NCBI GenBank assembly: GCA_009379825.1
Contig: WHTA01000005.1
Location: 62,001 to 126,000 of the forward strand
Length of the DNA: 64,000 bases
DNA from: Streptosporangiales bacterium
GTDB lineage: Bacteria; Actinomycetota; Actinomycetes; Streptosporangiales; WHST01
Reading direction: 5' to 3'
The translations under genes were made by a program, and so were the position numbers. The first letter of the stretch is position 1. Every line of letters starts with the position of its first letter. Below the pieces are notes generated by a model. It was given only the letters and a program-made list of their open reading frames with translations, did not search any database and was not told the DNA's origin. Positions 21,072 to 30,605 of the stretch are shown here, piece by piece.

Positions 21072-21163
21072 GAAACCCCCTGAGCGAATTGGGAAGACAC
21101 CACCCTACGACCGCAACCACGCTCCTACCCGCCTGCACGTCCCATTCCGCGGGTCGGCATCCA

Positions 21164-21192
21164 TTGACATGGAACAGTGATCCAATTAACTT
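21164..21192 (+). promoter_or_regulatory. Candidate sigma-70-type promoter of the amidohydrolase operon
   Basis: A consensus -35 TTGACA (21164-21169), a 17-bp spacer and TAACTT (21187-21192) form a good promoter about 90 bp upstream of the amidohydrolase ATG. The stretch after it is unusually AT-rich for this window and contains the palindrome TCTATAGA and two copies of TCCAATT. This 212-bp gap (21072-21283) contains no other gene. Confidence 0.55.
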
Positions 21193-21283
21193 CCCTCTAT
21201 AGAATCTAGCTCCAATTTCGTGGGCTCGTCGAGCTAACCCGACCGGGCAGTTTCGGACCCGCCAACGACGTCGAAGGGAACCG

Positions 21284-22495
21284 ATGACCACATCCCCGGA
21301 GCTCCGCCGCGCGGAAGCGATGATCCTGAAGACCGAGCCACGCCGCGGACTGCTCGCCAACGCCGCCAAGGAGGCGAAGGCGCGCGGGCTCTACGACATC
21401 CCCATCGTGGACGTGGACTGCCACATCATCGAGACGATGAACATGGCCGAGCTCATCCCGTTCATCAAGAACCCGGCGATCAAGCACCTGTACTCGAAGG
21501 TGCCGAGCATGGCCAACATGGACCTCGCCGGCAGCTACGGTGACCGCGACGCCGGCGGCCGGATCTTCCGTGACACGCCGATCCCGGGCACCCGCGGCGC
21601 ACCGTCGGTCGAGGGCCTGCTCGACGACATGCGGGTGATCGGCATCGACTACGCGTCGATCTTCCCCACCCCGATGCTCGCGCTCGGCGAGCACCCGGAC
21701 ATCGAGGTGGAGGTCGCGGTCGCGCAGGCATACAACCGGTGGCTCGTGGAGAACTACCTCGGGCACGACCCCAGGGTCAAAGCACTGCTCTACCTCCCGT
21801 TCAACGACCCGGAAGCGTCGTACCAGGAAGTCGTCGAGCTCGGCGACAAACCAGGCGTCGTCGGGTTCATGGTGACGAGCGTGCGCAAGACGCCGATCTA
21901 CCACAACAGCTACATGAAGACGTACGCGGCGCTGCAGGAACGCGGCCTGCCCATCGGGTTCCACAGCGGACCGAACTGGCACGCCGCCAGCGCCAGCGCA
22001 CAGCTCAACCGGTTCATGTCGGTGCATGCGCTGGACTTCCCGCTCTACAACATCCTGCACCTGTTCAACGTCGTCGTGAACGGGCTCCCCGAACGGTTCC
22101 CCAGGCTCAAGTGGGTCTTCTTCGAGGCCGGCATCTTCTGGCTCGCCTTCGCGATCCAACGGCTCGACCACGAGTTCCTCATGCGGCCCTCCGAGGCACC
22201 ACTGCTGAAGCGCCGGCCGAGCGAGTACATCAAGGAGATGTTCTTCGCGACGCAGCCGCTGGAGTACCCGGAGAAGATGGAGTACCTCGAGATGGTGTTC
22301 GACATGGTCGACGGGGAGTCCCAGCTGCTCTACGCGTCGGACTACCCGCACTGGGACTTCGACCTGCCGAGCCGGATCTACGACCTGCCGTTCCTCAGCG
22401 ACCAGGGGCGCAAACAGGTCCTCGGCGAGAACGCCATGCGGCTGTTCGACCTGCCCCAGCCGGCCATGCTCGACGTTGCCGAGGTGGAGTCATGA
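21284..22495 (+). CDS. Amidohydrolase-family metal-dependent hydrolase
   Basis: A 403-residue amidohydrolase_2 protein. Metal-site features are IPIVDVDCHIIE near residue 45, GLPIGFHSGPNWH in the middle and LLYASDYPHWDFD near the end, as in ACMSD/2-amino-3-carboxymuconate-6-semialdehyde decarboxylase-like enzymes. Members decarboxylate or hydrolyse ring-cleavage products and salicylate-like acids. The ATG has GAAGGGAACCG upstream. The stop overlaps the start of the Rieske gene (ATGA). Its coupling to a Rieske ferredoxin, a small orphan protein and an MHS transporter indicates one pathway, probably for an aromatic or heterocyclic acid. Confidence 0.88.
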   Translation: MTTSPELRRAEAMILKTEPRRGLLANAAKEAKARGLYDIPIVDVDCHIIETMNMAELIPFIKNPAIKHLYSKVPSMANMDLAGSYGDRDAGGRIFRDTPIPGTRGAPSVEGLLDDMRVIGIDYASIFPTPMLALGEHPDIEVEVAVAQAYNRWLVENYLGHDPRVKALLYLPFNDPEASYQEVVELGDKPGVVGFMVTSVRKTPIYHNSYMKTYAALQERGLPIGFHSGPNWHAASASAQLNRFMSVHALDFPLYNILHLFNVVVNGLPERFPRLKWVFFEAGIFWLAFAIQRLDHEFLMRPSEAPLLKRRPSEYIKEMFFATQPLEYPEKMEYLEMVFDMVDGESQLLYASDYPHWDFDLPSRIYDLPFLSDQGRKQVLGENAMRLFDLPQPAMLDVAEVES

Positions 22496-22890
22496 CCCAG
22501 GAGCACGTGACCGCGAGAGTGCCCACCGAGTACCACGTCTGCGCCGCAGACGACGTCGCCGAGCGCGACCGGGTGCTCATCGACGCGGGCGGCGTCGAGA
22601 TCGGCATCTTCAAGGTGAAGGGCAAGTTCTACGCGTACGAGAACCGGTGCGTACACCAAGGCGGTCCGGTGTGCCGAGGCGACGTACTCGGGCGTTGGGA
22701 GGAGCACCTCGACGAGGGCGGCCAGGTCGTCGGCGCCGACTTCTCCACCGAGCACATCGACATCGCGTGTCCCTGGCACGGCTGGGAGTACGACGTCGAA
22801 ACGGGGAAGAACATCGCGGATCCCCGGTTCCGACTGCGCTCGTTCGACGTCGTGGTACGCGACGGCGACATCTTCATCACCATCCCTTAG
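22492..22890 (+). CDS. Rieske [2Fe-2S] ferredoxin-like protein
   Basis: A 132-residue single Rieske domain. The two ligand motifs are CVHQGG (about residues 49-54) and CPWHGWEYD (about 89-97), so all four Cys/His ligands are present. The spacing between the boxes is 37 residues, about twenty more than in ordinary Rieske ferredoxins; the insert reads GRWEEHLDEGGQVVGADFS. A further cysteine (PVCRG) lies between the boxes. No oxygenase large subunit is in the operon. It may pass electrons to an oxygenase elsewhere or work directly with the amidohydrolase. It is translationally coupled to that gene. Confidence 0.88.
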   Translation: MTQEHVTARVPTEYHVCAADDVAERDRVLIDAGGVEIGIFKVKGKFYAYENRCVHQGGPVCRGDVLGRWEEHLDEGGQVVGADFSTEHIDIACPWHGWEYDVETGKNIADPRFRLRSFDVVVRDGDIFITIP

Positions 22891-22904
22891 CGAGGACGGC
22901 ATCC

Positions 22905-23147
22905 ATGAGCACCCCACTGCCGGCCGATGTCGAGCAGCTCAGCGACGAGGAGCTCAGGGCACTGCTCGAGCTCGTCATAAAGGTCTACTCACAGCGCGTC
23001 CAGGCACTCGTGGACGACGGAGAACCACCGTTCCCGCCGCTGCGCGCGGAGGGGTACGCAACCGCGACCGACGTCATGGTCGCGGTGCGGAACATGCTGA
23101 AGGTGTTCGAGATAGCACCGTTCGAGCTGAGCATGCTGCGCTACTGA
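22905..23147 (+). CDS. Small hypothetical protein in amidohydrolase/Rieske operon
   Basis: An 80-residue soluble, mostly helical protein (SDEELRALLELVIKVYSQRVQALVDDG and DVMVAVRNMLKVFEIAPFELSML). There are no cysteines and no membrane segment. I recognise no family. The ATG at 22905 is preceded by GCGAGGACGGC and lies 14 bp after the Rieske stop, so it belongs to the operon. Size and helical content suggest an accessory subunit or assembly factor for its neighbours, which is an inference from context only. Confidence 0.7.
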   Translation: MSTPLPADVEQLSDEELRALLELVIKVYSQRVQALVDDGEPPFPPLRAEGYATATDVMVAVRNMLKVFEIAPFELSMLRY

Positions 23148-23207
23148 CTTTGCGGTAACCCACTTCCCGTCGCGGGGCCAACGGCGGCCGATCAGCGAGG
23201 AGCGATG

Positions 23208-24529
23208 ATGGCAGAACGGGCGACTTCCCAGCCTGGCGTGAGCGACGATGCGTACCCCGCGCCTCGCGAGGCCCGCCGCGCCGGGATCGCAGCCTTCATC
23301 GGCACCACCATCGAGTACTACGACTTCTACATCTACAGCTCGGCTTCCGCGCTGGTGCTCGGGAAGATCTTCTTCTCCGGAGCACCACCGGCCATCGGCA
23401 CGCTCGCGGCCTTCGCCACCTTCTGGACCGGCTTCCTCACCCGGCCGTTGGGCGCCGTGATCTTCGGCCACTTCGGCGACCGCTACGGACGCAAGACCGC
23501 GCTGATCGTCACGTTGACCCTGATGGGTCTCTCGACATGCGGCATCGGCGCGTTGCCAGGTACGTACAGATCGGTGTCGCCGCACCGGTCCTGCTCATCC
23601 TGCTGCGGATGATCCAGGGCGTCGCGATCGGCGGCGAGTGGGGCGGCGCCGTACTCATCGCGACGGAGTACGCGCCACCGCGTAAGAAGTTGCTCTACGG
23701 CGCGTTCGCCCAACAGGGTTCCCCCGCGGGGAACCTGCTCGCGACGGCCGCGTTCCTGCTCATGGCCCAGCTCCCGGACGCGGCATTCGAGTCGTGGGGT
23801 TGGCGAGTGCCGTTCCTCGCGTCCGCGGTGCTGGTCGCCGTCGGCCTCTTCATCCGGCTGCGACTCGCCGAGACCCCAGAGATGCGGAAGGTCATCGAAC
23901 GCAGGGAGGTGTCCAGGCTCCCGATCAAGGACGTGCTCCTGAGCCACCCGGTTCTCGTGCTGCTCGGCGTCGGCGCGGTCACCGCAGGGATCTCCATCAC
24001 CTACGTGAAGACGACGTTCGCGCTCTCGTGGGCGACCACGGAGCTGTCCTTCGACCGCTCTGCGTTCCTCACCATCATCTCGATCGCGCTGATCGCCCAG
24101 GTGATCGTGCAGCCGTTCGGCGCCGTGATCGCCAGCCGGATCGACATCAAGCGCGCGATCGCCTGGATCCTGCTGCCCGAGGTCGTCCTGCTGCCGCTGA
24201 TGTTCGTACTGATCGGGACGAACTCGTTCTGGCTGGCCATGCTGGGCATGGTGCTCGCGACGTTCCCGCACGCGATGTACTACGCCGCACTGGCCGGAAT
24301 CCTCGCCAAGGTGTTCCCCGCCGCCGTCCGTTACACCGGCATGTCGTTGTGCTACACCCTCTGCACGACCCTGTTCGCAGGCACCGCACCCATGGTGTCG
24401 CAGTTCCTACTGAGCAGCACAGGCACAGTGTGGTCCGTAGTAGCACTGGGACTCGCCTACGTCGCCATCACCCTCGTATCGGTAATGCCCCTCCTGACCA
24501 GAACGCACCAGAACACCACACCCGCGTAG
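23208..24529 (+). CDS. MHS-family MFS symporter, frameshifted
   Basis: A protein of about 440 residues. The N-terminal part (IAAFIGTTIEYYDFYIYSSAS, GHFGDRYGRKTALIVTLTLMG) and the C-terminal part (LLILLRMIQGVAIGGEWGGAVLIATEYAP onward to twelve helices) are both classical MHS sequence but lie in different frames. Adding one base between 23558 and 23561 joins ALP to YVQIGVAAP, the usual sequence. The ATG at 23208 fits GAGGAG best. It lies 60 bp after the 80-residue gene, so it probably imports the substrate of the amidohydrolase/Rieske enzymes. The lesion is a single base and may be an error. Confidence 0.85.
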
Positions 24530-24554: not shown

Positions 24555-24614
24555 TTGACCATCTCGGCGAAGCGCGTATACGGTCGCCGTTATGCGCATT
24601 AGTTATGCGCATAA
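24555..24614 (+). promoter_or_regulatory. Promoter with tandem LacI-type operators
   Basis: -35 TTGACC (24555-24560), 16-bp spacer, -10 TATACG (24577-24582). Transcription should start near 24589. Two 12-bp palindromes follow, TTATGCGCATTA (24590-24601, one mismatch) and TTATGCGCATAA (24603-24614, perfect), both centred on CG, with 13 bp between centres. They would let the LacI protein encoded just downstream repress its own operon. They also rule out the upstream ATG at 24592 as the likely start. Confidence 0.7.
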
Positions 24615-24627
24615 CTCTGAGGTGATC

Positions 24628-25743
24628 ATGGACGCGGAACAGCCACGGGAGCCGGAGCAGCGGCAACGGGCGCGAGCACGGCAGGCCGACATCGCGCGCG
24701 CTGCCGGTGTGTCGCAGGCGACCGTCTCACTCGTGCTGAGCGACGGCGAGGCCGCCGCACGGCGAGTGGCGGAACCGACGCGACGGCGCGTGCTCGAGGT
24801 CGCCGAGCAGCTCGGCTACTCGGTCAATCCGGCCGCGCGCAGCCTCGCCGGCGGACGCAACCGGCTGCTCGGCGTCTACACGTTCGAGGCCGTCTTCCCT
24901 TCCAGGGACCGCGACTTCTACAACCCGTTCCTCGTCACCATCGAGCAGGAGGCCGAGCGCGCGGCCTACGATCTCCTGCTCTTCACCAGTGCCACACTGC
25001 CCGACCAGCGGCGCAGCATCTATGCCGGCGGCGTCAACCGACTCGCCCTCGCCGACGGCTGCATCCTGCTCGGCCGCAGGGAGAACCAGGCCGAGGTAGC
25101 CCGGCTGGCCAGGGAGGGCTTCCCGTTCGTCTACGTCGGGCGCCGGGAGATCCCCGACTGCGAGTTCTCGTACGTGGCCGCCGACTACGCCGCAGTCACC
25201 GCGCAGGTCGCGGCACACCTCGTCGAGCTCGGACACCGCAACATCGCCTACCTCGGCGCGTACCAGCCCAAGACGCCGGACCACGACCGTGCCACCGGCT
25301 GGCAGGCGGCTGTCGAGGACGCCGGCATCGGCGACACCACACAGCTACTGCGGCTCGGCAAGCGCCGCGAGATCGAGCCGGTGATCGCGCAGCTGGTCGA
25401 AGACGGCTGCACGGCACTCGTCCTGGAGGACCCGGAGTCGGCACAGCGGTACCTGGACACGGTCGCCGAGCTCGGCCTCGACGTGCCCGGCGACATCTCC
25501 GTAGCAGTGCTCGGCGACGTACCGACCGTCAGCGGCACGAGCAACTGGACCGGTTTCCGCATCCCCAGGGAGGAGATGGCCAGGCAGGCCGTGCGGCTAC
25601 TGCTCGACGCCATCGACACACCGGCCGCGCAACCGGCGAACGTCACCGTGCCCTGTTCGTTCACCGCGGGCACGACGGTCGGCAAGGTGCCGCGCGCCAC
25701 CGGCACCCGTACGCGCAGGACGACACGAGGACGGAGCCGATGA
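24628..25743 (+). CDS. LacI-family regulator, first gene of the FAD/ABC operon
   Basis: A 371-residue LacI regulator: HTH RQADIARAAGVSQATVSLVLSDGEAAARR, hinge VNPAARSLAGGRNRLLGVY, and a sugar-binding-like sensor domain (NPFLVTIEQEAERAAYDLLLF, DGCILLGRRENQ, GTSNWTGFRIPREEMARQAV). I place the start at 24628 (GAGGTGATC upstream); the in-frame ATG at 24592 lies inside the operators. The stop overlaps the start of the first FAD oxidoreductase (ATGA). It is thus the leading cistron of its own operon, with autoregulation through the tandem palindromes. Confidence 0.92.
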   Translation: MDAEQPREPEQRQRARARQADIARAAGVSQATVSLVLSDGEAAARRVAEPTRRRVLEVAEQLGYSVNPAARSLAGGRNRLLGVYTFEAVFPSRDRDFYNPFLVTIEQEAERAAYDLLLFTSATLPDQRRSIYAGGVNRLALADGCILLGRRENQAEVARLAREGFPFVYVGRREIPDCEFSYVAADYAAVTAQVAAHLVELGHRNIAYLGAYQPKTPDHDRATGWQAAVEDAGIGDTTQLLRLGKRREIEPVIAQLVEDGCTALVLEDPESAQRYLDTVAELGLDVPGDISVAVLGDVPTVSGTSNWTGFRIPREEMARQAVRLLLDAIDTPAAQPANVTVPCSFTAGTTVGKVPRATGTRTRRTTRGRSR

Positions 25744-27350
25744 CGTTGGAGGAAGTGGACATCGCCGTGATCGGCGGCGGCCTGGGCGGGGTGGCCGCCG
25801 CGCTTGCTGCGCTCCGGCAGGGGTGGACAGTACTGCTGTCAGAAGAGACGGAGTGGCTCGGTGGCCAGCTGACGGCACAGGCCGTACCGCCCGACGAGCA
25901 CCCGTGGATCGAGCAGTTCGGGTGCACGAAGTCGTATCGAGCGCTGCGCGACGGCATCAGGGCGTACTACCGCAGCTGGTATCCGCTCACCGCCGAGGCG
26001 TACAACGATCGCTGGCTCAACCCCGGCGCGGGACGGGTGAGCAAGCTGTGCCACGAACCCCGGGTCGGGCTCGCGGTGATCGAAGCCATGCTCGCGCCGT
26101 ACCGGGCGACCGGACGGCTTCGGGTCCGCACCGGCTGTCGGCCGGTCGCCGCCGACGTGGACGGCGATCGCGTGCGGTCCGTCCTGTTGCGCGACGCCGC
26201 AGGCGACACCGCCGAGGTGACCGCAGGTTACGTGCTCGACGCGACGGAGACCGGCGAGCTGTTGCCGCTCACCGGCACCGAGTACGTCACCGGGTTCGAG
26301 GCCGCGGCGGAGACCAGTGAGCCACATGGCGCGGCGCAGGCGCAACCACTGAACATGCAGGCGGTCTCGGTGTGCCTGGTAGTCGACCACCGCGCGGGTG
26401 AGGACCACACGATCGACCGGCCGGCGAACTACGCCTTCTGGCGTGACTACCAGCCGAGCTACTGGCCGGACCGACTGCTCAGCTGGACGGCGCCCGATCC
26501 ACGCACCCTCGAGCCGGTCACCCGTCAGTTCCTGCCCAATCCGGACGACCGCAGCGCACACATGTTCGCCGACCAGAGCAAGGATGCCGGCGACAAGGAA
26601 CTGTGGACCTTCCGCAGGATCGCCGCGCGACGCACCTTCACCGAAGGTTTCCTCGCCAGCGACACATGCCTCGTCAACTGGCCGATGATCGACTACCTCG
26701 CAGGCCCGATCTTCGAGGTCGACGATGCCGAAGCAGCCAGGCACGTGGCAGGCGCCCGCGAGCTGAGCCTCTCGATGCTGTACTGGATGCAGACCGAGGC
26801 GCCACGTGCCGACGGTGGCACAGGGTTCCCCGGCCTACGGCCACGCGGCGACCTGATCGGCACCACCGACGGGCTGGCATTGGCGCCGTACGTCAGGGAG
26901 TCCAGGCGCATCCGTGCCAAGTACACGGTCGTCGAGCAGGACCTCTCACTGACCGTACGCGGTAACCACGGTGCGGTCAGGTACGAGGACTCGGTCGGCG
27001 TAGGCAGCTACCGAATCGACCTGCACCCGTCCACCGGCGGCGACAACTACATCGACGTGGCCGGCTCACCGTTCGAGATCCCGTTGCGGTCGCTGGTGCC
27101 CGTGCGGATGCGGAACCTGCTGCCCGCGGCGAAGAACATCGGCACCACCCACATCACCAACGGGTGCTACCGCCTACACCCCGTCGAGTGGAACATCGGC
27201 GAGGTCGCCGGCACGCTCGCCGCGTTCTGCCTGAGCGACGGACACACACCTGAGGAAGTGGCCGACAAACCCGAGGTGTTCGCGGAGCTGCAGCGCCTGC
27301 TGCACCACGTCGGCGTAGAGACCCGATGGCCGGAGATCGAAGGCTACTGA
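25740..27350 (+). CDS. FAD-dependent oxidoreductase (FAD_oxidored type)
   Basis: A 536-residue flavoprotein with an N-terminal dinucleotide motif DIAVIGGGLGGVAAALAALRQGW and the SEETEWLGGQLTAQAVPPDEH segment of the PF12831 group. Near the C-terminus, FEIPLRSLVPVRMRNLLPAAKNIGTTHITNG is also characteristic. Start ATG overlaps the LacI stop. The operon then has a second flavoprotein of the same broad group and a peptide-type ABC importer. Members of this group are poorly characterised; many sit in carbohydrate or glycoside catabolic clusters. The substrate is unknown and is presumably what the ABC system brings in. Confidence 0.87.
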   Translation: MTLEEVDIAVIGGGLGGVAAALAALRQGWTVLLSEETEWLGGQLTAQAVPPDEHPWIEQFGCTKSYRALRDGIRAYYRSWYPLTAEAYNDRWLNPGAGRVSKLCHEPRVGLAVIEAMLAPYRATGRLRVRTGCRPVAADVDGDRVRSVLLRDAAGDTAEVTAGYVLDATETGELLPLTGTEYVTGFEAAAETSEPHGAAQAQPLNMQAVSVCLVVDHRAGEDHTIDRPANYAFWRDYQPSYWPDRLLSWTAPDPRTLEPVTRQFLPNPDDRSAHMFADQSKDAGDKELWTFRRIAARRTFTEGFLASDTCLVNWPMIDYLAGPIFEVDDAEAARHVAGARELSLSMLYWMQTEAPRADGGTGFPGLRPRGDLIGTTDGLALAPYVRESRRIRAKYTVVEQDLSLTVRGNHGAVRYEDSVGVGSYRIDLHPSTGGDNYIDVAGSPFEIPLRSLVPVRMRNLLPAAKNIGTTHITNGCYRLHPVEWNIGEVAGTLAAFCLSDGHTPEEVADKPEVFAELQRLLHHVGVETRWPEIEGY

Positions 27351-27382
27351 TCTCGCGAAACACAATGAAGTGAGGCGAACCC

Positions 27383-28798
27383 ATGACTGACGATGTCGAG
27401 CTGCGGATCAGCGCTCCGGTACGGGCGAGGACCGACGTCCTCGTCGTCGGCGCCGGCCCTGCCGGCCTCGCCGCGGCCATCGCGAGCGCTCGGCAGGGTG
27501 CCAGGACAATGCTGGTCGAGCGGTACGGATACGTCGGAGGCAACCTGACCGCAGGGCTCGTCGGCCCGTGCATGACGTCGTACAGCCTGGACGGTAGCCA
27601 GCAACTCATCAAGGGCATCTTCGAGGAACTGGTGCTGCGGATGGAGGCCGAGGACGCGGCCATCCACCCGTCGCGGATCCCCGGCGGCAGCCCCTACTCG
27701 GGTTTCATCAGCTTCGGCCACGAGAAGGTCACCCCGTTCGACCCGGAGGCGGTGAAGGCCATCGGGGCGGAGATGTGCCTGGAAGCCGGCGTCGAGCTGC
27801 TGTTGCACACCTCGGTCGTGCAGGCGAGGACCGCAGGCGGCCGGGTGACTGGCGTCGTCGTCGCGAGCAAGTCCGGGCTCGAGGTGCTCGAAGCAGACGT
27901 CGTCGTCGACTGCTCCGCGGATGCCGACGTAGCCGCGACGGCGGGCGCCGAGATTCTCCAGGGCCGCGACGAGGACGGCCTCACCCAACCGATGACGCTC
28001 TTCTTCCGGATCGGTAACGTCGACGACGCCGTCGTCGAGGAGTACGTCGCCGCACATCCGGACGACATCCGCCCGTTCGCATCGATCGTCGCGGAGGCCA
28101 CGAAGACAGGCGAGTTCACCGTGCCCCGTCGCGGCATCGGCATCTACAAGACACTGCGCTCGGGCGTATGGCGGGTGAATACCACCCGCGTGCACCGGGT
28201 CGACGCGACCGACGTCGGTGACCTCACCCGAGCCGAGATCGAGGGACGCAGGCAGGTGACCAGCCTGATGGCGTTCTTCCGGCGCCGGCTGCCCGGTTTC
28301 GCCGACTGCGTACTGCTCGACACCGCGGCCACCATCGGGGTACGTGAGTCACGCCGCATCCGCGGCGAGTACACGTTGACCCTCGACGACCTGGCTACCG
28401 GCCGCGAGTTCGACGACGTGATCGGGCTGTGCGGGTATCCGGTCGACATCCACAGTCCGACAGGTAGCGGTGGCGGGGTCGACGACAGCGCAGCCACCGC
28501 GGGTGCGTACCAGATCCCATACCGCTCGCTGGTGCCGACGCATCCGGAGCAGCTACTCGTCGCCGGCCGGTGTGTGTCGGCGACGCACGAGGCACTCGGC
28601 GCGATCCGGGTGATGCCACCGGCGTTCGCCATGGGCCAGGCCGCGGGCACGGCCGCCGCACTTGCCGTACGTGACGGCGTGCCGCCGCGTGCCGTCGACG
28701 TGGCAGCGCTCCAGCGCCAGTTGCTCGACGACGCCGCCTACCTCGGACCGCGGTACGAGACGGTCACGGCACACGAAGGCCGCAGCGGGGAGGGCTGA
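27383..28798 (+). CDS. Second FAD-dependent oxidoreductase of the operon
   Basis: A 471-residue flavoprotein beginning VRARTDVLVVGAGPAGLAAAIASARQGARTMLVERYGYVGGNLT, the GxGxxG plus GGN/T signature of the FAD_oxidored family. The C-terminal IPYRSLVPTHPEQLLVAGRCVSATHEA and AIRVMPPAFAMGQAAGTAAALA are standard for this family. It follows the first flavoprotein after 32 bp, with GAAGTGAGG upstream of the ATG. Shared end motifs suggest the two arose from one ancestor but they are far diverged, so they probably act on successive intermediates. It lies 3 bp from the permease gene. Confidence 0.88.
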   Translation: MTDDVELRISAPVRARTDVLVVGAGPAGLAAAIASARQGARTMLVERYGYVGGNLTAGLVGPCMTSYSLDGSQQLIKGIFEELVLRMEAEDAAIHPSRIPGGSPYSGFISFGHEKVTPFDPEAVKAIGAEMCLEAGVELLLHTSVVQARTAGGRVTGVVVASKSGLEVLEADVVVDCSADADVAATAGAEILQGRDEDGLTQPMTLFFRIGNVDDAVVEEYVAAHPDDIRPFASIVAEATKTGEFTVPRRGIGIYKTLRSGVWRVNTTRVHRVDATDVGDLTRAEIEGRRQVTSLMAFFRRRLPGFADCVLLDTAATIGVRESRRIRGEYTLTLDDLATGREFDDVIGLCGYPVDIHSPTGSGGGVDDSAATAGAYQIPYRSLVPTHPEQLLVAGRCVSATHEALGAIRVMPPAFAMGQAAGTAAALAVRDGVPPRAVDVAALQRQLLDDAAYLGPRYETVTAHEGRSGEG

Positions 28799-28801
28799 CC
28801 G

Positions 28802-29731
28802 ATGGCCGGCTACCTGGCTCGCAGAGTGGCGCAGTCGGTGCTGGTGATCTGGGGGGCGCTCACCATCGTCTTCGTCGTCGTACGCGTAATACCCGGCGAT
28901 CCCGCCGCGCTACTGCTCGGACCGACGGCGACACGCGAGCAACTCGCGAGGACGCGCGAGAGTTTCGGCCTGGACCGGCCATTGCCCGAGCAGTACTTCT
29001 CGTACCTGCTCGACGTGCTCCGCCTCGACTTCGGCGAGTCGGTGCGGCTCGGCGGGCCGGCCATGGCCGAGGTGTTGCAGCGGCTGCCGGCCACTCTGTC
29101 GCTCGCCTTCGCGGCGCTGGCGTTGACCGTCGCCGTCAGCTTCCCCCTCGGCGTGCTCGCCGCACGCCGGCCGCACAACGTCGGCGGCAGGCTGATCTCC
29201 GTGTTCTCCCTCGCCGGCCAGGGCATGCCCCAGTTCTGGGTAGGGATCATGCTGATCCTCCTGCTCTCCGCGACACTGCGCTGGCTGCCGGCGTCCGGTT
29301 TCACGTCATTGGCGGGTCTGATCATGCCGGCGACGGCGCTCGCACTGCCGTTCATCGGTTGGCTCATCCGGTCCGTGCGCAGCGGGGTCATCGACGAGCT
29401 CGGCAAGGACTACGTCCGCACCGCCAACGCCAAAGGCCTCCTCGACGGCACAGTGTTCTACGGCCATGTGCTCCGTAACACGCTCGTGCCCATCACCACG
29501 GTCGTCGGCCTGCTGCTCGGCATCTTCATCGGCAACGCGGTGATCGTCGAGGTCGTCTTCGCGTGGCCCGGCGTAGGCCGGCTGCTCGTCGATGCCATCA
29601 CCTACCGCGACTACTCCGTCGTGCAAGCCGCCGTCGCGGTGATCACCGTCGTCTACGTGTTGCTCAACCTGGCCGTCGATGTGCTCTACACGTACCTCGA
29701 TCCGCGAGTGCGCTTCCAGGAAGGCAGGTGA
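28802..29731 (+). CDS. Peptide-type ABC transporter permease (DppB family)
   Basis: A 309-residue inner-membrane permease. It opens MAGYLARRVAQSVLVIWGALTIVFVVVRVIPGDPAALLLG, the standard DppB/OppB N-terminus, and has the EAA loop GKDYVRTANAKGLLDGTVFYGHVLRNTLVPI and the closing FAWPGVGRLLVDAITYRDY motif. Six membrane segments. It forms the channel with the second permease downstream. The ATG is 3 bp after the stop of the flavoprotein gene. This transporter class carries peptides, nickel, glycosides and other solutes, so the family name does not fix the substrate. Confidence 0.93.
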   Translation: MAGYLARRVAQSVLVIWGALTIVFVVVRVIPGDPAALLLGPTATREQLARTRESFGLDRPLPEQYFSYLLDVLRLDFGESVRLGGPAMAEVLQRLPATLSLAFAALALTVAVSFPLGVLAARRPHNVGGRLISVFSLAGQGMPQFWVGIMLILLLSATLRWLPASGFTSLAGLIMPATALALPFIGWLIRSVRSGVIDELGKDYVRTANAKGLLDGTVFYGHVLRNTLVPITTVVGLLLGIFIGNAVIVEVVFAWPGVGRLLVDAITYRDYSVVQAAVAVITVVYVLLNLAVDVLYTYLDPRVRFQEGR

Positions 29732-29735
29732 CCAC

Positions 29736-30605
29736 GTGGCAACGCTCTCCCGCCCTACCGGCATGCAGTTGACACTACGGCGAGTCCCGCTGCGCGTCGC
29801 GCTGCCGGGCGCCGTCGTCGCGTTGTACGTCATCGCCGCGACACTCGGACCGATCGTCCGCCCGTACGAGGCGTCGCAGACCAACGTCGTCGACCGGCTG
29901 CTGCCCCCGGGGGCCACACTCGCCAACGGCAGCACCGCATGGTTCGGCACCGACCAAGTCGGCCGCGACCTCCTCGCGCAGGTGCTCGCCGGTGCGCGGG
30001 TGTCGCTCGTCGTGGCAGCTGCCACGATCGTGTTGGGCGGCGCACTCGGACTGTTGCTCGGCCTGCTCTCCGGCTACTTCGGGCGCTGGATCGACAGCAT
30101 CATCATGCGGCTCGGTGACATCCAGCTCGCGTTCCCCAGCATCCTACTGGCGATCCTGATCGCCGGTGTGCTCGGCCCCAGCGTCGTGAACGTCATCCTG
30201 ACGCTTGCGATCACCCGCTGGGTGATATTCGCCCGTGTGGTACGTGCATCCGCGCTCGTCGCGAAACGAAGGGAATCCGTCGACGGCGCCAAGGTACTCG
30301 GCGTCTCGACCGGTCGGATCCTGTGGCGCTACATCCTCCCCGACGTGCTCGGCCCGCTGCTCGTGGTGGCCACCGTGCAGGTCGGCCTGATGATCATCGC
30401 GGAGGCGTCGCTGAGCTTCCTCGGCCTGGGCGTGCCTACGTCGCAGGCCTCGTGGGGCTCCACCATCGCCGCCGGCCGCGACTACCTCGACACCGCTTGG
30501 TGGATCGCTGCGGTCCCCGGCCTGGCGATGGCCCTGCTCGTGGTCTGCGTCGGCGTGCTCGGCGACGCACTGCGGCACCGCACCGATCCGACCGTCGATC
30601 TCTAG
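29736..30605 (+). CDS. Peptide-type ABC transporter permease (DppC family)
   Basis: A 289-residue permease with the DppC layout: a first helix PLRVALPGAVVALYVIAATLGPIV, the periplasmic stretch ANGSTAWFGTDQVGRDLLAQVLAGARVSL, then five helices and the EAA loop ESVDGAKVLGVSTGRILWRYILPDVLGPLLV. It ends with SFLGLGVPTSQASWGSTIAAGRDYL. I chose GTG at 29736, preceded by GGAAGGCAGG; the ATG at 29763 would remove only cytoplasmic residues. It pairs with the preceding DppB-type permease. Confidence 0.92.
   Translation: MATLSRPTGMQLTLRRVPLRVALPGAVVALYVIAATLGPIVRPYEASQTNVVDRLLPPGATLANGSTAWFGTDQVGRDLLAQVLAGARVSLVVAAATIVLGGALGLLLGLLSGYFGRWIDSIIMRLGDIQLAFPSILLAILIAGVLGPSVVNVILTLAITRWVIFARVVRASALVAKRRESVDGAKVLGVSTGRILWRYILPDVLGPLLVVATVQVGLMIIAEASLSFLGLGVPTSQASWGSTIAAGRDYLDTAWWIAAVPGLAMALLVVCVGVLGDALRHRTDPTVDL

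What the first reader, a model, noticed from the sequence alone, without database searches (positions are those of the whole stretch)
21284..24529. Amidohydrolase - Rieske - orphan - MHS transporter operon
A single-domain Rieske protein is translationally coupled to a metal-dependent amidohydrolase/decarboxylase without an oxygenase. It is followed by an 80-residue protein I cannot place. The set looks like a complete but unusual degradation unit for an acidic ring compound.
Basis: partly seen in the sequence, partly recalled or inferred. Interest (0 to 1): 0.55.

Follow-up and report, generated by a model that had tools for sequence, protein, structure and literature searches.

The report
Small partner for "amidohydrolase" oxygenases
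Three neighbouring genes look like a bacterial oxygen-using enzyme disguised as an amidohydrolase, its electron-carrier protein, and a small unnamed helper protein that keeps turning up beside such enzymes in many bacteria.

Summary
The trio is real: amidohydrolase-fold protein A (21284-22495), single-domain Rieske protein R (22492-22890, ATGA overlap) and an 80-residue protein S (22905-23147). The claim "without an oxygenase" is wrong. By sequence, predicted fold and six conserved candidate metal ligands, A is an amidohydrolase-related dinuclear oxygenase (ARO), the family of AibH2 and SfbO, and R is its ferredoxin. New here is S. It matches no Pfam or NCBIfam family and no solved fold, yet sits with A and R in 47 of 82 ARO loci examined. 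All 26 S copies in 17 of 18 genomes chosen from those loci lie beside R and A. In an independent draw (289 genomes) all 15 new copies lie beside R; 14 are beside an ARO and one has an ARO 5.8 kb away. Gene order varies while linkage holds. The host genome has a second trio and four further ARO-Rieske loci without S. I read S as an accessory component of a subfamily of ARO monooxygenases, most likely acting where ferredoxin and hydroxylase meet; its mechanism and the substrate are unproven, and a fused S-A model gave no confident interface. The MHS transporter is one gene split by a frameshift.

The parts
21284..22495 (+). A: amidohydrolase-fold protein, predicted ARO hydroxylase (403 aa); candidate ligands D45, H47, H227, E281, D353, H356
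   Evidence: PF04909; nearest solved chains are AROs; ligand columns
22492..22890 (+). R: single-domain Rieske [2Fe-2S] protein (132 aa), predicted electron donor; C53-x-H55 ... C93-x2-H96; start codon overlaps the stop of A (ATGA)
   Evidence: PF00355; motif; overlap read
22905..23147 (+). S: 80-aa protein of an unnamed family, predicted accessory component
   Evidence: model
23205..23612 (+). 5' part of an MHS-type MFS transporter, frameshifted near 23555-23565
23537..24529 (+). 3' part of the same transporter in another frame
21072..21283 (+). intergenic region upstream of A, presumed to hold the promoter; no sigma-70-like site found

Best explanation
The unit is a multicomponent monooxygenase of the ARO kind (amidohydrolase-related dinuclear oxygenase). 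A is the hydroxylase: a TIM barrel predicted to hold a two-metal site (Fe2 or Mn/Fe) that binds O2. R passes electrons to A from a reductase encoded elsewhere. The permease, if functional, brings in a small, probably anionic substrate, which A hydroxylates as the first catabolic step. S is a dedicated accessory protein of one ARO subfamily. I think it most likely binds A and/or the A-R complex and governs electron delivery or coupling, as effector proteins do in other multicomponent monooxygenases. Shown by sequence: the relatedness of A, the six conserved candidate ligands, the Rieske motif, and the tight linkage of S to R and A in changing gene orders. Inferred: the metals, O2 chemistry, electron flow, any binding by S, the substrate, and everything about what S does.
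For: A: best solved-structure matches by sequence are 8sm7 (4e-46), AibH2 6m1w_B (4e-37) and SfbO 8sm6 (4e-37), while mononuclear decarboxylases score 1e-9 or worse. The fold search with the model of a close homologue ranks 8sm7, 8sm6, 8sm8 and AibH1H2 first. D45, H47, H227, E281, D353 and H356 show no substitution in 88 ARO rows; only truncated or frame-broken rows have gaps. The set has the make-up reported for SfbO, three carboxylates and three histidines (PMC10811679). R: Rieske motif intact. A small Rieske neighbour occurs for about 90% of AibH2-like proteins (PMC10401708 section 7). S: in 47 of 82 loci, always with R and A; 26 of 26 copies linked in 18 chosen genomes; 15 of 15 new copies beside R in a class-wide draw, 14 beside A and one with A 5.8 kb away. 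Four gene orders seen. S without R: 0 of 82; R without S: 23; neither: 12 (Fisher p 1e-5 ignoring kinship). On the tree S spans the base of an 80-row ARO clade.
Against: S is missing from 23 of 70 ARO loci that have a Rieske gene in the census, so many close AROs work without it. AibH1H2GF works with no such protein (PMC7782822, passages). The fused S-A model gave low confidence over S (pLDDT about 43-62 over residues 1-70) and pTM 0.76, so no interface is supported. No reductase gene lies in the unit. Residue differences between S+ and S- AROs follow a clade rather than S. Conservation of D353 and H356 is partly built in, because one search pattern was DYPHWDF.
Confidence: 0.7

Rival explanations
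1. S is an assembly or metal-loading helper: it keeps A folded or soluble, or controls Fe/Mn loading, and takes no part in turnover.
For: Linkage to A is as strong as to R; AROs can hold different metals (PMC10811679); the absence of S from many AROs fits a helper needed only by some.
Against: In the window S has no Cys or His, so it is unlikely to carry metal itself. S is never found without R in the census (0 of 82), which points to electron transfer or turnover rather than assembly of A alone.
Confidence: 0.25
2. S is a structural subunit of the hydroxylase, standing in for the catalytically silent AibH1 partner.
For: AibH2 needs a second barrel subunit (PMC7782822), while the window trio has one barrel plus S. 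The conserved F-E-L-x-x-W tail of the family looks like a docking segment.
Against: Some S loci have two barrels with full ligand sets flanking R-S (L133, L134). The fused S-A model shows no confident contact.
Confidence: 0.25
3. A is an ordinary mononuclear hydrolase or decarboxylase and R serves something else.
For: PF04909 contains such enzymes; Foldseek also lists decarboxylases lower down.
Against: All six dinuclear ligand positions are kept; AROs lead both the sequence and the fold lists. In the same genome an amidohydrolase without a Rieske neighbour lacks this ligand set (L147).
Confidence: 0.04
4. S is a passenger gene with no role in the system.
For: It is absent from many close AROs.
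Against: Four gene orders with conserved linkage, presence in actinobacterial, proteobacterial and Chloroflexi records (record titles), and no unlinked copy among 41 checked.
Confidence: 0.04

Closest known systems
AibH1H2GF, 2-aminoisobutyrate monooxygenase of Rhodococcus wratislaviensis (PMC7782822, PMC10401708)
   Same: PF04909 hydroxylase with a dinuclear site, adjacent single-domain Rieske protein and a permease gene in the cluster
   Different: Aib has two barrel subunits and a reductase gene in the cluster and no S in the gene table seen; the window unit has one barrel, S and no reductase
SfbO and the other candidate AROs 8SM7-8SM9, titled TruffO in the PDB (PMC10811679)
   Same: closest solved structures; same six ligand residues; Rieske neighbour
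   Different: they fall outside the S-bearing clade; the paper text read here mentions no small third protein (parts 1 and 2 of 3 read; supplement and figures not seen)
Bacterial multicomponent monooxygenases with effector proteins (MmoB/TmoD type, recalled)
   Same: working analogy: hydroxylase plus ferredoxin plus a small dedicated protein
   Different: the hydroxylase fold is a TIM barrel rather than a four-helix bundle (as PMC7782822 notes for Aib); no sequence or fold link of S to any solved chain was found

Membership tests
ARO (amidohydrolase-related dinuclear oxygenase) | PF04909 amidohydrolase fold | tested here: met
   E 4.5e-29; Foldseek on a homologue's model
ARO (amidohydrolase-related dinuclear oxygenase) | six dinuclear ligands (three carboxylates, three His) | tested here: met
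   D45 H47 H227 E281 D353 H356 align with the same residues in five solved ARO chains; the first two are visible in only two of the five typed fragments. Naming them as the ligands is my inference from the make-up given in PMC10811679
ARO (amidohydrolase-related dinuclear oxygenase) | adjacent small Rieske protein with C-x-H ... C-x2-H | tested here: met
   22492-22890, C53/H55/C93/H96
ARO (amidohydrolase-related dinuclear oxygenase) | dinuclear Fe2 or Mn/Fe cofactor and O2-dependent C-H oxidation | not testable with these tools
   needs purified protein
AibH1H2GF-type system | paired barrel subunits H1 and H2 | tested here: not met
   one PF04909 gene in the window unit
AibH1H2GF-type system | ferredoxin reductase gene in the cluster | tested here: not met
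   none among the ORFs of 21284-24529; flavoproteins at 25740-28798 are PF12831, not a 2Fe-2S reductase
Rieske ring-hydroxylating dioxygenase system | large Rieske oxygenase alpha subunit beside the ferredoxin | tested here: not met
   no such domain among ten proteins of the region scanned
mononuclear PF04909 hydrolase/decarboxylase | no glutamate/DYPH-histidine pair for a second metal (recalled contrast) | tested here: not met
   both residues present; L147 of the same genome, without a Rieske neighbour, lacks the set
effector protein of multicomponent monooxygenases (MmoB/TmoD) | effector fold | tested here: inconclusive
   no Foldseek match at E 0.001 or better; best VIA Z 3.8 to unrelated chains
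any named Pfam or NCBIfam family, for S | score above the curated cut-off | tested here: not met
   window S: best Pfam hit 13.5 bits against a cut-off of 38.9, no NCBIfam hit. For the 44 family members the best E-values were 0.02 in Pfam and 0.0024 in NCBIfam, each family matched by at most two members; per-member cut-offs were not printed

The most novel reading that the evidence does not exclude
S is a coupling or effector protein for a widespread subfamily of TIM-barrel, Mn/Fe- or Fe2-dependent monooxygenases, so that the plan 'hydroxylase + Rieske ferredoxin + small effector' of bacterial multicomponent monooxygenases arose a second time on an unrelated hydroxylase fold.
Probability: 0.3. 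Interest if true: 0.75.

Novelty: new variant of a known kind. Interest (0 to 1): 0.5.

Why it matters
AROs are a young class of oxygenases that can use manganese for C-H oxidation, and only a handful have known substrates or full electron chains. A conserved, unnamed third component gives a direct handle: it may be something that in-vitro work on this subfamily would otherwise leave out (PMC10811679 reports a KM of 83 mM for SfbO on a surrogate substrate, though SfbO itself lies outside the S clade). It also marks a subfamily that can be picked out of genomes where the hydroxylase is annotated simply as "amidohydrolase family protein" and S as "hypothetical protein".

Tried and rejected
Interface by prediction: S and A were predicted as one read-through chain from locus L051. 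S came out at low confidence (pLDDT about 43-62 over residues 1-70; pTM 0.76), so this neither supports nor excludes contact; 16 paired rows is shallow.

Docking site from S+ versus S- AROs: seven columns differed, five of them within residues 285-304. The S+ members nested in the S- clade (L022, L028, L035) carry mostly the S- residues, and the S- rows outside it carry mostly the S+ residues, so this is a clade effect. Rejected.

Known family for S: Pfam, NCBIfam, PDB sequences by single sequence and by profile, Foldseek and VIA gave nothing usable. The list for S has one match at E 0.009 over 25 residues of a cytochrome c555 construct, which I take as coincidental. A missing fold match does not show a new fold.

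Constant pathway partner: 112 neighbours of 30 S+ loci share no single family (most common: glyoxalase 6, then aldehyde dehydrogenase, TctC and FAA hydrolase 5 each of 112). No substrate follows.

Riboflavin catabolism (PMC12746152, passages) was opened because it names an amidohydrolase and a Rieske system; the passages seen concern a Rieske dioxygenase, not an ARO. Literature on S: searches gave no paper that I saw describing it (listings and abstract starts seen, except the papers named here); subscription papers, supplements and figures were not seen. The DitZ search listed only unrelated papers. Plasmid search with the window S found nothing. Promoter and terminator scan: none.

Full report
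What is there. Window 21284-22495 encodes a 403-aa PF04909 protein (A). Its TGA overlaps the ATG of a 132-aa single-domain Rieske protein (R, 22492-22890). After 14 nt follows an 80-aa ORF (S, 22905-23147). The MHS transporter behind it is one gene split between two frames. ORF 23205-23612 and ORF 23537-24529 align to residues 2-102 and 99-418 of one intact MFS transporter. The window lies in contig 5 of a 6.15 Mb, 169-contig genome.

A is an oxygenase of the ARO kind, not a plain hydrolase. phmmer against solved structures puts 8sm7 (4.2e-46), AibH2 6m1w_B (3.9e-37) and SfbO 8sm6 (3.9e-37) first; gamma-resorcylate decarboxylase and its kin start at 1.3e-9 (profile search). Liu et al. 2024 (PMC10811679, parts 1 and 2 of 3 read) name the group AROs and describe a dinuclear site of three carboxylate and three histidine ligands in SfbO. 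They used adjacent small Rieske genes to find candidates. Powell et al. 2023 (PMC10401708, outline, section 7 and passages) report 90% co-occurrence of a small Rieske protein and 40% of permeases among 555 AibH2-like proteins. In my alignment of 88 ARO rows plus five solved chains, D45, H47, H227, E281, D353 and H356 are never substituted: 86, 86, 88, 87, 87 and 87 of 88, the rest gaps in truncated or frame-broken rows. One search pattern (DYPHWDF) pre-selects part of this. The model of a close homologue's A (L051, read through from S) ranks ARO and AibH1H2 chains as the top 19 Foldseek rows, with human ACMSD next.

S is a conserved third component. A second trio lies in the same genome (order R-S-A; A 46%, R 40%, S 39% identical). 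With a three-sequence S profile, not iterated, S was found in 46 distinct loci outside the window (47 rows, one a duplicate record). The iterated profile gave the same set: with the window, 47 of 82 loci have S, all 47 with R and A; 23 have R without S and 12 have neither. Some of the 12 may be cut by contig ends, and many loci are MAGs. Order in the 47: R-S-A 42, R-A-S 3, A-R-S 2; S starts inside R in 21 of 44 R-S-A/A-R-S loci (start codons chosen by rule). A-S-R occurs in Aminobacter and in L107-L109.

Linkage test. An S profile of 44 sequences was run on 18 whole genomes reached through 20 loci of my choice: 26 matches in 17 genomes, all 26 with R and A within 1.5 kb. It was then run on 289 genomes drawn from the class of one of them: 11 genomes, 18 matches, 15 of them new. 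All 15 had R adjacent and 14 had A adjacent; the last has an ARO start 5.8 kb downstream, cut by the end of the fetched stretch. The tool scored at most 17 candidates per genome there. In the plasmid collection a Sinorhizobium S finds 8 records.

Phylogeny. In a quick ML tree of 90 rows (three truncated rows dropped: L059, L085, L109), the S-bearing AROs spread over an 80-row clade, including its deepest actinobacterial branches. A block of 15 Rhizobiales-type rows has R only, ten rows have neither, and the solved AROs fall outside. Branches are long and several forks are open, so "S is ancestral to the clade" is a likely reading, not a proof.

Own-genome control. Of nine relatives of A in this genome, eight were examined. 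Seven AROs with the full ligand set lie at six loci, each with a Rieske gene (C5, C2, C53, C19 with two AROs, C92, C12). Only the C5 and C2 loci have S. One relative (C4) lacks the set and has no Rieske neighbour. The ninth (C30) was not examined.

What S might do. S of the window is predicted as a small helical protein (mean pLDDT 87.4, pTM 0.69; helices 14-37, 54-67, 72-77) with no significant fold match. It has no Cys or His. In the family alignment F73 and L75 are invariant, and T55, L65, E74 and a Trp at position 78 nearly so (the window itself has Leu at 78). S never occurs without R in the census, while R occurs without S. I therefore favour a role at the R-A step (effector, docking or coupling) over a role on A alone, but the fused S-A prediction was uninformative and I ran no covariation test between S and its partners. 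A loading helper or structural subunit remains open.

Pathway. Neighbours differ widely: glyoxalase-type, aldehyde dehydrogenase, TctC, FAA hydrolase, ABC solute-binding and NMT1 proteins (112 neighbours of 30 loci). An Aminobacter locus joins A-S-R to a FAD aromatic hydroxylase, a LigB-type ring-cleavage enzyme, another amidohydrolase, CHA aldolase and 4-hydroxybenzoate 3-monooxygenase. A Neorhizobium locus has a TPP enzyme and tripartite tricarboxylate transporters. Small anionic substrates are plausible; an aromatic acid is supported for one relative only.

Verdict. Ordinary in its core (a known oxygenase class mistaken for a hydrolase), new in its third protein: an unnamed family tied to a subfamily of AROs. 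New variant of a known kind.

Noticed in passing
23205-24529: The MHS-type transporter gene is split by a frameshift near 23555-23565; the two parts align end to end with one intact homologue.
   Followed up: yes
L140-L146 (G000 contigs 5, 2, 53, 19, 92, 12): The host genome carries at least seven predicted AROs at six loci, each beside a Rieske gene; a large repertoire of this young enzyme class in one actinobacterium.
   Followed up: partly
L133 7670-10935; L134 6209-9527: Two AROs with full ligand sets flank a shared R-S pair, recalling the paired H1/H2 of Aib.
   Followed up: partly
L036, L037, L039, L041, L055, L061, L069, L073, L078, L079: AROs inside the S-bearing clade with neither R nor S nearby; in the tree these fall in several separate groups. 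L061 lies in the same genome (G307) as the R-S-A locus L062; whether such AROs borrow R and S from another locus is open.
   Followed up: no
24592-30605: Downstream lies a LacI-type regulator, two PF12831 FAD oxidoreductases and two ORFs that look like ABC-transporter permeases, apparently a separate operon (the ABC reading is mine).
   Followed up: no
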